From NCBI RefSeq assembly GCF_000517625.1, contig NZ_CP007055.1:744001-808000 (forward strand): a stretch of 64,000 nt of DNA. Direction: 5' to 3'. Source of the DNA: Halostagnicola larsenii XH-48. GTDB lineage: Archaea > Halobacteriota > Halobacteria > Halobacteriales > Natrialbaceae. The notes below the pieces were generated by a model. It was given only the letters and a program-made list of their open reading frames with translations. It did not search any database and had not been told where the DNA came from. How positions within the stretch are numbered: the stretch's first letter is position 1; each line of letters begins with the position of its first letter. The position numbers were made by a program, and so were the translations under genes. Shown here piece by piece: positions 10,743-13,890 of this stretch.

Positions 10743-12437
10743 ATGCCTGAGTTCGGTGCGCTCTCGATACTGCCGCCGCTGCTCGCTATCGTCCTCGCGA
10801 TCGTGACGCGGCGGCCGATGCTCTCGTTGTTCCTGGGTATCTGGTCCGGGGCGATCATCTACACCGAGAGTCTGGGAATCGCACAGACGTTCGATTGGAT
10901 CGTAAGCGGAATAATCGCCGACGACGGGTTCTACGTCGAGATCCTGCTCTTTACGCTCCTGCTCGGTTCGGGGGTCGCGCTCATCTGGCGACTCGGCGGC
11001 GCGACCGCCGTTCGACAGTGGGCGACGGCGAACCTCCAGACCCGGCGAAACGTGGGATTGACGACGTGGTTACTGGGTCTGTTGTTGTTTTTCGACGATT
11101 ACGCGAACACGGCGATCGTCGGCAGTACCATGCGCGAGCTCTCGGATCAGCTCCGAATCTCCCGCGAGAAGCTCTCTTACATCGTCGACTCGACGTCCGC
11201 GCCCGTGGCGACGATCGGGCTCTCGAGCTGGGTCGCGTTCCAGCTCTCGTTGATCGCCGACGCGTACGACGGTCTCGATGGCGTCTCGGAGACGCCGACC
11301 GCGTTCGAGACGTTCATCGGTTCGATCCCGTTCAACACCTACGCGCTGCTCGCCATCGTGATGGTCGGGGTCATCGTCTACACGGGGCGGGACTACGGCG
11401 AGATGCTGACCGCGGAACACCGCGCGTGGTCTTCCGGAAAGGTAAACCGCGACGACGCACAGCCCTTGCAGGAAGTCGAGAAGGACCTCGGCGAGCCGAT
11501 CGAGGACAAACCGATGCTTCGGACGTTCTTCGGACCGGTCGTCGTCCTCCTCGCAGTCACGTTGTCCGGCGCGGTCTGGACCGGACACCAGTCGTGGCTC
11601 TCCGCCCAGGAGGAGGCAGGCGCTCCGACGGCGTTCGGCGCGGCGGCCGACGAGAGCGGAACGGTGCAGGTGCTCGTCGATATCGTCGGTGCGGGGAATT
11701 TCACCAGTTCGCTGATCTGGGGTTCGTTCGCGATGGTCACCACCGCGATCGCGATCGGCATCGCCTACGATCTCTTCGATCTTAGCGACGGCGTGGAGAC
11801 GGTTCTCGACGGTTTCCGACTCATGTTGACCGCAGTGACGATCCTCGTTCTCGCGTGGGGGATCAGTTCGACCACGGACGCGCTGGGGACCGGCGATTTC
11901 GTCGCCGGCGTCGTCGGGGCATCTATCCCCGCGGCACTTCTCCCGCTCGTCATCCTGTTCGTCTCCGCGTTCGTCGCGTTCACCATGGGATCGTCGTGGG
12001 CGACCATGACGATCGTGACCCCCATTGCGATCACCGTCGCCTTCGAGATGACGGGGACGTTCGAACCCATGCCCGTCGTCGTCGGTGCCGTCTTCTCTGG
12101 CGCGATCTTCGGCGATCACACCTCGCCGATCTCCGATACGTCGGTGCTCTCCTCGACGTTCACCGGCGCCGATCTGATCGACCACGTTCGAACGCAGTTT
12201 TACTACGCTGGGACCGTGATGGCCGTTGTCATCGTCTGTTACCTGCTGTACGGCTTCCTCGAGGTGCCACCGCTTATCTTCCTTCCGCTCGGATTCGTCC
12301 TGCTCGTCGGTCTCGTCTACGCGCTCTCGGAACTAGACGCTCGGCGACGCGGCGTCGAGCCCGTCGTTTCGAACGTCCCACAGGAAGATCCGGAATCCGT
12401 CTCCGCTCGAGAACCCACGACCGATTCGACGGAGTAA
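10743..12437 (+). CDS. Na+/H+ antiporter, NhaC family
   Basis: A 564-residue membrane protein with about 11-12 hydrophobic helices. The family signatures are visible: LFFDDYANTAIVGSTMRELSD in the first half, and MGSSWATMTIVTPIAI plus GAIFGDHTSPISDTSVLSSTFTGAD in the second half. Such transporters expel sodium in exchange for protons or carry other ions or organic acids (NhaC-like proteins are diverse). The C-terminal tail is acidic and cytoplasmic. It is followed by an unusual AT-rich intergenic patch. The ATG at 10743 begins directly before the first helix. Confidence 0.9.
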   Translation: MPEFGALSILPPLLAIVLAIVTRRPMLSLFLGIWSGAIIYTESLGIAQTFDWIVSGIIADDGFYVEILLFTLLLGSGVALIWRLGGATAVRQWATANLQTRRNVGLTTWLLGLLLFFDDYANTAIVGSTMRELSDQLRISREKLSYIVDSTSAPVATIGLSSWVAFQLSLIADAYDGLDGVSETPTAFETFIGSIPFNTYALLAIVMVGVIVYTGRDYGEMLTAEHRAWSSGKVNRDDAQPLQEVEKDLGEPIEDKPMLRTFFGPVVVLLAVTLSGAVWTGHQSWLSAQEEAGAPTAFGAAADESGTVQVLVDIVGAGNFTSSLIWGSFAMVTTAIAIGIAYDLFDLSDGVETVLDGFRLMLTAVTILVLAWGISSTTDALGTGDFVAGVVGASIPAALLPLVILFVSAFVAFTMGSSWATMTIVTPIAITVAFEMTGTFEPMPVVVGAVFSGAIFGDHTSPISDTSVLSSTFTGADLIDHVRTQFYYAGTVMAVVIVCYLLYGFLEVPPLIFLPLGFVLLVGLVYALSELDARRRGVEPVVSNVPQEDPESVSAREPTTDSTE

Positions 12438-12713
12438 GTCGGATTCGATCGCTTCCCTGCTCGAGATTCGCTTCGAACGCCTCTGGTGAATCGCCAGATA
12501 GCGCCGACCTGATCCGTCACAACTAGGGAGTTGAAACTGGAAACTGCGGCTGCTTTCTGTCCAAAATTTCCCGCTCCACAGGGAAGGTGGCGATTCACCA
12601 CGGCCGCTCAAATCGGATTCTTCTTCGGATATCACCAGAAAGATACAACGTGACGAGTAATTCTAGTATATTGAAATATTTCCGCTGAATTAGAACTACT
12701 GTTCACGAAGGAA

Positions 12714-12887
12714 TTATGACTGTAGTATGCTTCCAAAGGTTAGGCCCGTACCGATTAGGACACACGCTATCCCGACGAGGAACAAGGAGAAAAAACCGTT
12801 TTCGAGGGTAACGATTTGTATGAGTACAATTCCTATTAACGTCGTCTGCAGCCCAACTGCCAACCTGGACACATCATTGAGGACCAT
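12714..12887 (-). CDS. Small two-helix membrane protein in AT-rich patch
   Basis: A 57-residue ORF starting at the ATG 12885-12887, with two hydrophobic helices (about residues 9-28 and 33-53) separated by a short polar turn containing LENG. Its base use is AT-rich and unlike haloarchaeal genes around it, with few acidic residues. It lies inside the inverted-repeat patch. It could be a real horizontally acquired membrane peptide or chance. I recognise no family. Confidence 0.4.
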   Translation of the reverse strand: MVLNDVSRLAVGLQTTLIGIVLIQIVTLENGFFSLFLVGIACVLIGTGLTFGSILQS

Positions 12888-12986
12888 GGTTATCAAAACC
12901 TTCTTTTCGAAATGACATTAGTGCTGGCAATCAGTAGAAGGCTTTGAGCGAGAACCATCAATTTAATTAGGTGGTTAGGCGGGGCT

Positions 12987-13016
12987 CTGGTGAATCGCTA
13001 CCCAGCGATTCACCAG
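12987..13016. repeat. 13-bp perfect stem, 4-base loop hairpin
   Basis: CTGGTGAATCGCT (12987-12999) pairs with AGCGATTCACCAG (13004-13016) across ACCC. It is the right-hand copy of the repeat bounding the AT-rich patch, arranged as two abutting inverted copies. A second stem, GTCCTGC/GCAGGAC, follows at 13034-13052 upstream of the VOC gene. Confidence 0.75.
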
Positions 13017-13098
13017 GACCCTTCGAACGAGACGTCCTGCAGACCGCAGGACTACCGGCTTCGCCACGCTTTTAGAATTACCGACCGTAACCCCGCAC

Positions 13099-13890
13099 AT
13101 GGACGGAACGCTCGATCACGTGATGCTGCGAGTCGCGGACTTAGACGACTCCCTCGAGTGGTACCAGACCCACTTAGACTACGAGGAGAAAGACCGCCAC
13201 GAGGGCGACGGCTTCACCATCGTCTACCTTGGACCCGAAGAGATGCACGAGGAGGGAGCGATGCTCGAGTTGACTCACAACGAGGACGAAGACGACCTCG
13301 AAGTCGGCGACGCGTGGGGCCACATTGCGGTTCGCGTTCCCGAGGACGAACTCGAGTCGTCCTACCAGCAACTCATGGACGAGGGCGTCGAGGACTACCG
13401 CGATCCTGAATCCTGCGGCGGCCGATACGCGTTCGTCAAGGACCCCGACGGCCACGAAATCGAGATCGTCAAGCGCGACTACGGCGCGAAGTGGTCGCTC
13501 GATCACACCATGATTCGCGTCGAGGACGCCGACGAGGCGATCGGTTTCTGGACCCGGAAGTTCGAGTACGAACACGCCGGCCGCTGGGAGTCCGATACCT
13601 TCGCGAACTACTTCATGAAACCGGAAGGCGCCGCCGAGGAGGCGATGACGGTCGAACTCACCTACAACTACGACGGCCGAAGCTACGAACTGGGCGACGC
13701 CTGGGGACACCTCTGTGTCGAAGTCGACGACCTCGCCGGGGACTGGGAGCAATTACAGACTCGAGAGGCGGCCGACTACCGCGATCCGGAGAGCAACGAC
13801 AACATGTACGCGTTCACCAAAGATCAGGACGGCCACGAGATCGAACTGCTCGAGCGCGATCCGAACGCCGATTCGCTGTTCCCCTTCTAG
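13099..13890 (+). CDS. Two-domain VOC (glyoxalase-like) protein
   Basis: A 263-residue protein made of two tandem vicinal-oxygen-chelate domains (about 1-125 and 131-255). Each has the beta-alpha-beta pattern: LDHVMLRVADLDDSLEWY and LDHTMIRVEDADEAIGFW at the starts, GDAWGHIAV and GDAWGHLCVEV in the middle, and KDPDGHEIEIVKRD and KDQDGHEIELLERD at the ends. The His and Glu of these motifs are usual metal ligands. Lactoylglutathione-lyase-like or dioxygenase activity is possible; the substrate is unknown, and haloarchaea use no glutathione. The two domains probably arose by duplication. Confidence 0.9.
   Translation: MDGTLDHVMLRVADLDDSLEWYQTHLDYEEKDRHEGDGFTIVYLGPEEMHEEGAMLELTHNEDEDDLEVGDAWGHIAVRVPEDELESSYQQLMDEGVEDYRDPESCGGRYAFVKDPDGHEIEIVKRDYGAKWSLDHTMIRVEDADEAIGFWTRKFEYEHAGRWESDTFANYFMKPEGAAEEAMTVELTYNYDGRSYELGDAWGHLCVEVDDLAGDWEQLQTREAADYRDPESNDNMYAFTKDQDGHEIELLERDPNADSLFPF

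What the first reader, a model, noticed from the sequence alone, without database searches (positions are those of the whole stretch)
12483..13016. AT-rich patch flanked by inverted repeats: non-autonomous mobile element candidate
CTGGTGAATCGC at 12483 and its inverse at 13005-13016, an internal inverted copy at 12588-12600, a long hairpin at 12987-13016, and an AT-rich core are not explained by the neighbouring genes. CTTCGAACG lies on both sides. It looks like a MITE or an IS end series that has lost its transposase.
Basis: partly seen in the sequence, partly recalled or inferred. Interest (0 to 1): 0.55.

Follow-up and report, generated by a model that had tools for sequence, protein, structure and literature searches.

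The report
Transposase-less compound transposon with passenger gene
A 542-base piece of DNA jumped as one unit into a salt-loving archaeon's chromosome, using the worn-down ends of a common insertion sequence and carrying a tiny, probably membrane-bound protein's gene; it is a well-supported example of a known kind of hitchhiking mobile element.

Summary
The repeats are real and mark a true insertion. Two congeneric genomes have the empty site, with a single copy of the target. The ends belong to an IS5-family insertion sequence, typically 938 bp, found across this archaeal family (end GGCTCTGGTGAATCGC, 8-bp duplication). Inside are (a) a 127-bp internal-deletion derivative of the IS, 12479-12605; (b) a passenger segment with a small conserved ORF on the minus strand (57 aa, 12714-12887), 91% identical to one on a Natrinema versiforme plasmid that also abuts a left end of this IS group; (c) a 38-bp stub, 12983-13020, little more than the IS's two ends, which makes the hairpin. 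Only the outermost ends share a target duplication, so the unit moved as one. Neither stub was found elsewhere in the searches made, so it does not look like an amplified MITE. Three other duplication-bounded units with passenger genes were found, one in the same genome. Known kind; moderate interest.

The parts
12471..12478 (.). left target duplication CTTCGAAC
   Evidence: 8/8 identical to 13021-13028; the next base (G) is also shared, so the edge is ambiguous by 1 base. Single copy at the empty site: CTTCGAACG in G001, ATTCGAACG in G002
12479..13020 (.). whole inserted unit, 542 bp: transposase-less compound transposon
   Evidence: absent from two congeners whose sequence is continuous across the site; exact 8-bp duplication
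12479..12494 (+). outer left terminal inverted repeat (GCCTCTGGTGAATCGC)
   Evidence: one difference from the usual IS end GGCTCTGGTGAATCGC
12479..12605 (+). stub A: internal-deletion derivative of the IS5-family element (about 110 bp of its left end fused to its 16-bp right end)
   Evidence: best matches 83-89% identical to left ends of this IS in relatives; junction read against the copy in L029
12590..12605 (-). inner right IR of stub A (GCGATTCACCACGGCC)
   Evidence: identical to the right end of the IS in L029
12606..12982 (.). passenger segment, AT-rich, between the two stubs
   Evidence: 12695-13007 is 87% identical to pNVE414 of Natrinema versiforme, running across the junction with an IS left end; no other match in its own genome or four congeners at E <= 1e-4
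12714..12887 (-). passenger gene: 57-aa small hydrophobic protein, probably two membrane helices by eye (60 aa if the TTG at 12896 is the start)
   Evidence: in-frame 3-nt indel, excess of silent changes, p = 0.00075
12983..13020 (.). stub B: IS reduced to 38 bp (left IR plus about 10 bp, fused to a right IR), forming the hairpin
   Evidence: first 26 bp match the IS left end 24/26 in L020; fold; only match of its exact pattern in 125 genomes
13005..13020 (-). outer right terminal inverted repeat (GCGATTCACCAGGACC)
13021..13028 (.). right target duplication CTTCGAAC
10743..12437 (+). left neighbour: Na+/H+ antiporter family gene (host)
   Evidence: PF03553
13099..13890 (+). right neighbour: glyoxalase/VOC gene (host)
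   Evidence: PF00903; a match in 125 of 125 genomes of the family

Best explanation
A passenger segment with a small gene lay between two copies of one IS5-family insertion sequence. A transposase recognised the outermost inverted repeats and inserted the whole unit between the antiporter and glyoxalase genes, duplicating 8 bp of target. Each flanking IS lost its inside by deletion (to 127 bp and 38 bp), keeping only the ends that a transposase needs. Without its own transposase the unit can move only if a related IS5-family transposase acts in trans. Shown: the insertion, its boundaries, the target duplication, the IS family of the ends, and the passenger's homologue beside a left end of the same IS group in another species. 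Inferred: the transposase acting in trans, the order of deletion and insertion, translation and membrane location of the small protein.
For: Empty site in two congeners with one copy of the target. The outermost ends have an 8/8 target duplication; stub A alone scores 4/8 and stub B alone 2/8. Of 2,471 outward-facing end pairs, 24 have an 8/8 and 4 a 7/8 duplication; the offset control gives 0 at 8/8 and 9 at 7/8 in 24,627 comparisons. Of the 24, 17 are IS copies of 895-994 bp with transposase sequence, 11 of them exactly 938 bp. The core and its junction with an IS left end are shared with pNVE414 at 87%, with no indel at the junction; the IS there still holds degraded transposase sequence over aa 1-265 (47% identity). 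Small gene: 16 nt differences, only 5 amino-acid changes, one 3-nt indel, p = 0.00075. Three other units of the same IS group with 8/8 duplications and passenger genes: L020 in the same genome, L198, L184.
Against: No second copy of the whole unit is known, so repeated movement is not shown. In its genome no intact transposase of this IS was found: the best copy (C4) is frame-disrupted, and the only match without a stop over nearly the whole length is 48% identical, with no matching ends seen beside it. The left 89 bp of the passenger (12606-12694) have no homologue here. In N. versiforme only a right-hand IS partner is present, and it is a diverged relative (about 70% DNA identity to L029). 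The more distant relatives of the small protein (L046, L206, L207) do not sit beside clear ends of this IS in the loci fetched.
Confidence: 0.88

Rival explanations
1. Two independent insertions of short elements (a 127-bp and a 38-bp MITE) around sequence that was already in the spacer.
For: Both stubs have both of their own ends, so each could in principle be an element.
Against: The core is absent from the spacer of two congeners, which is continuous without it. Neither stub has its own target duplication while the outer pair has 8/8. Neither stub turned up as a repeated element in 125 genomes.
Confidence: 0.04
2. A single simple element: an IS whose transposase gene was replaced by a passenger gene (mobile insertion cassette), the inner repeats being accidental internal copies.
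For: Outer ends and target duplication alone fit this. L145 may be such a case, with half an IS, a passenger gene and one right end, though with a 7/8 duplication only.
Against: The inner copies have the positions and orientation of a right end and a left end of the same IS. Stub A's inner end is identical to the right end of the L029 copy, and in N. versiforme a degraded IS with transposase remains occupies the place of stub B.
Confidence: 0.07
3. The hairpin is a host regulatory structure (terminator or attenuator) and not part of an insertion.
For: Stable fold, z = -4.6.
Against: Absent with the rest from both congeners; no terminator-like site and no Rfam match up to E = 1; its arms are IS ends.
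Confidence: 0.01

Closest known systems
TIME-COMP (composite transposon-like units bounded by two Tn3-derived miniature elements; abstracts of PMC4133298 and PMC13367494 read)
   Same: two transposase-less miniature elements of one transposon family flank and mobilise intervening DNA
   Different: here the ends are of an IS5-family element with 8-bp duplications, in an archaeon, and the two stubs differ in length and were found nowhere else, rather than being two copies of one amplified miniature element
ISH2 and the ISH2+ISH8A cassette of Halobacterium salinarum (passages of PMC10264941 read; ISH2-type element with an ORF: passages of PMC3119063 read)
   Same: haloarchaeal transposase-less element of about 530 bp with a small ORF, mobilised in trans; a two-element cassette bounded by one common 10-bp duplication is described
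   Different: ISH2 has ISH8-related ends, mostly 10-bp duplications and many listed copies; this one has ends of an IS5-family element, an 8-bp duplication, one copy and a compound anatomy
Mobile insertion cassette (passages of PMC5444012 read)
   Same: passenger gene between IS ends without a transposase, derived by internal deletion
   Different: the published one is bracketed by one pair of inverted repeats; here there are four ends, two of them internal
IS5-family insertion sequence of Natrialbaceae (typically 938 bp; transposase matches NF033579 transpos_IS5_2)
   Same: ends, duplication length, left 110 bp
   Different: no transposase gene left

Membership tests
Compound (composite) transposon | two copies of one IS (or its remnants) flank non-IS DNA | tested here: met
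   stub A and stub B each carry left- and right-end sequence of the IS
Compound (composite) transposon | one target duplication flanks the outermost ends and none the inner elements | tested here: met
   8/8 outer, 4/8 and 2/8 for the stubs alone; empty sites
Compound (composite) transposon | passenger gene | tested here: met
   57-aa ORF under purifying constraint; expression not tested
Compound (composite) transposon | movement observed or multiple locations | tested here: inconclusive
   one location only for the whole unit; the core plus an IS left end is also on a N. versiforme plasmid
MITE | short, terminal inverted repeats, target duplication, no transposase | tested here: met
   542 bp, (no transposase match inside the unit)
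MITE | multicopy, essentially non-coding | tested here: not met
   one copy in its genome, none of the core in four congeners, and it carries a conserved ORF
IS5 family (origin of the ends) | DDE transposase of the IS5 family in full copies with the same ends | tested here: met
   NF033579, E = 5.8e-77, for the L029 transposase; copies with the same ends and transposase sequence inside
ISH2-type element | homologous ORF and ISH8-like ends with 10-bp duplication | tested here: inconclusive
   duplication is 8 bp and the ends belong to another IS; no homologue of the small protein outside this family in 391 genomes of the class, but no ISH2 sequence was compared directly

The most novel reading that the evidence does not exclude
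This IS5-family group may act as a general gene-capture system in haloarchaea: single genes or small operons (a small membrane protein, a GIDE-domain membrane protein, a 291-aa protein, hydantoinase genes) are packed between one IS and a miniature derivative, or between two stubs as here, and shuttled between plasmids and chromosomes. The 57-aa protein would then be a selected cargo with a function of its own.
Probability: 0.25. Interest if true: 0.5.

Novelty: new member of a known kind. Interest (0 to 1): 0.36.

Why it matters
It shows how little of an insertion sequence can be left on a passenger-carrying unit (38 bp on one side) while the outer ends and target duplication stay intact. It suggests how small accessory genes can hop between haloarchaeal plasmids and chromosomes without a recognisable transposase. 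Such units are easy to overlook: the homologous ORF on pNVE414 is not in the PLSDB gene table, a table that is itself incomplete.

Tried and rejected
An amplified MITE family: not supported, since no second stub A or stub B turned up (exact pattern only, at most 7 candidates per genome scored, five genomes of the genus with every candidate scored). RNA family: no Rfam match up to E = 1. Terminator: none found. Named protein family for the small product: only sub-threshold Pfam matches for the window protein (DUF2232, 12.4 bits against a cut-off of 27.8; DUF7470, 10.9 against 27), none in NCBIfam. Of its two homologues, one had two other sub-threshold matches and one had none. Wider search for the small protein: none in genome contigs (single-sequence patterns; the N. 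versiforme homologue did not appear either, so this search is weak), none in viral contigs, one plasmid record, 3 of 125 genomes of the family including its own, 4 of 391 of the class including its own, two of these weak at about E = 4.5e-4.

Empty sites: of 29 orthologous loci fetched besides the window's own, ten were compared. None of the ten has a match to the element at E <= 0.1, but only two congeners (L048, L050) align across the junction. In the other eight the spacer has diverged, and in one of them (L057) no antiporter side was matched at all. The fifth congener, G003, was not fetched.

Units with a 7/8 duplication: L145 and L156 are weak compound candidates and not counted as shown; L131 1247-2151 is an IS copy; L170 (poor ends) is taken as chance, about 0.9 being expected at 7/8. 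L197 (2,442 bp, 8/8) is an IS interrupted by an IS110-family element, not a compound unit. The 80 regions scanned cover 83 of the 112 matches that one search listed in relatives; 6 at contig ends and the 23 others, all among the weakest, were left out.

Full report
Observation. GGTGAATCGC occurs exactly four times in the window, all inside 12485-13014, where 0.2-0.3 would be expected. The stretch is AT-rich against its surroundings, and 12983-13020 forms a strong hairpin. The neighbours are a Na+/H+ antiporter gene (10743-12437, PF03553) and a glyoxalase-superfamily gene (13099-13890, PF00903).

It is an insertion. The glyoxalase gene has a match in 125 of 125 genomes of the family. Ten of 29 fetched orthologous loci were compared. 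In two congeners (G001 = L050, G002 = L048; about 91% identical on the left, 92-94% on the right) the alignment runs to 12479 and resumes at 13021 or 13022 with the same TTCGAACG. Read base by base, G001 has one CTTCGAACG and G002 one ATTCGAACG where the window has CTTCGAAC, 542 bp, CTTCGAAC. The other eight loci also have no match to the element, but their spacers are too diverged to read the junction.

Whose ends. 12481-12588 is, in its best matches, 83-89% identical to the left end of IS5-family elements in relatives (52 of 125 genomes of the family have a match to 12479-12605 at E <= 1e-6, from 72% identity up). The typical element is 938 bp with ends GGCTCTGGTGAATCGC and GGCCGTGGTGAATCGC and 8-bp target duplications; the transposase of the L029 copy matches NF033579, IS5 family, at E = 5.8e-77. 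I tested outward-facing end pairs (up to 3 mismatches in the 11-base core, up to 9 kb apart) in 89 sources: the window, L020-L027 and 80 fetched regions. Of 2,471 pairs, 24 have an 8/8 and 4 a 7/8 duplication, against 0 and 9 of 24,627 in an offset control. The 24 are 17 IS copies of 895-994 bp, one IS with an internal deletion (645 bp), one solo miniature element (L023), one IS interrupted by an IS110-family element (L197) and four compound units, the window's among them.

Anatomy. Stub A (12479-12605) is about 110 bp of the IS left end fused to its right end; the position of the transposase start codon reads CTG here. Stub B (12983-13020) is the IS left end for about 26 bp (24/26 identical to L020) fused to a right end; a shared AGCGA at the junction suggests a microhomology deletion (read by eye). 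Neither A nor B alone has a target duplication (4/8 and 2/8), the outer pair has 8/8. Hence the two stubs and the DNA between them most likely arrived together. Neither stub was found elsewhere: the exact end-to-end hairpin pattern with 0-30 bases between has no other match in 125 genomes, and no other listed match covers all 127 bases of A (at most 7 candidates per genome scored, genus, every candidate scored).

Passenger. 12695-13007 is 87% identical to plasmid pNVE414 of Natrinema versiforme. There the segment abuts an IS left end at the same distance as in the window, and that IS still holds degraded transposase sequence (transposase aa 1-265 matched at 47%, DNA pieces at about 70-74%). 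It is a diverged relative of the L029 IS, not the same copy. This supports an ancestral unit in which stub B was a longer IS. The segment encodes 57 aa on the minus strand (12714-12887). The two versions differ at 16 nucleotides in the aligned codons but only 5 residues, with 9 differences at third positions, plus one 3-nt indel (dN 0.041, dS 0.294). Random substitution gives as few residue changes without a stop in 0.075% of trials. A third homologue (40% identical) is in G098. Its hydrophobicity suggests two membrane helices (read from the sequence, not computed). No family assignment reached a cut-off.

Relatives of the arrangement. Three further units with 8/8 duplications hold passenger genes between ends of this IS group. 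In the same genome, contig C4 of 172,663 bp (L020, 2,025 bp): disrupted IS, a 257-aa GIDE-domain protein (PF12483), a 186-bp miniature element. In G036 (L198, 2,834 bp): a 938-bp IS, a 291-aa protein without a Pfam match up to E = 0.01, a 180-bp miniature element. In G042 (L184, 5,591 bp): a 152-bp miniature element, an Lrp/AsnC regulator, hydantoinase A and B genes, an IS end. In L198 and L020 the inner IS and the miniature element, and in L184 the left miniature element, have no duplication of their own (0-4 of 8). So compound movement looks like a recurrent habit of this IS group, and the window unit is the smallest and most eroded of the four found here. Empty sites were not sought for the other three.

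Mechanism. Established biology of DDE transposases (recalled) says that only the outer ends and a transposase are needed. In this genome no intact transposase of this IS was found (E <= 1e-20: two pieces of the disrupted C4 copy, a match without a stop at 48% identity, and one partial match at 47%; no matching ends beside the 48% one), so the unit is probably immobile at present or depends on an incoming IS. Whether the stubs formed before or after insertion is open. The insertion leaves 70 bp upstream of the glyoxalase gene, including a CTTTTAGAATTACCG block kept in both congeners, so that gene's promoter is probably spared (inference).

Known kinds. TIME-COMPs (abstracts of PMC4133298 and PMC13367494), mobile insertion cassettes (passages of PMC5444012) and, in haloarchaea, the 531-bp ISH2 and a cassette of ISH2 plus partial ISH8A bounded by one common duplication (passages of PMC10264941; PMC3119063 for an ISH2-type element with an ORF) are the same kind of thing. 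The titles and abstract starts listed by searches show no description of this IS5-family compound unit; each list was cut or limited to open-licence papers, and ISfinder was not available. The family name Natrialbaceae rests on the taxonomy lines of matching plasmids and on contig lengths shared with genomes of the window's own family; the window's genus is not identified. I file it as a new member of a known kind.

Noticed in passing
L020 581-2605 (own genome, contig C4:42380-44404): A second compound unit of the same IS group in the same genome: disrupted IS5-family element, a 257-aa GIDE-domain membrane protein gene, a 186-bp miniature element, one 8-bp duplication CTCTTTTT around all.
   Followed up: partly
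L198 6049-8882 and L184 5993-11583: Duplication-bounded compound units in relatives carrying a 291-aa protein with a signal-like N-terminus (by eye), and an Lrp/AsnC regulator with hydantoinase A/B genes.
   Followed up: partly
L145 3737-6104 and L156 3825-6124: Possible further units with 7/8 duplications, carrying a 479-aa gene without a Pfam match above cut-off and a 363-aa protein with a TAT-like signal (by eye).
   Followed up: partly
L023 743-928 (own genome, contig C3): A solo 186-bp miniature element of the same IS group with an exact 8-bp duplication AAGGAGAT; by eye its interior resembles the miniature element of L020.
   Followed up: no
L197 6065-8506: A copy of this IS interrupted by an IS110-family element; its own 8-bp duplication is still intact.
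   Followed up: partly
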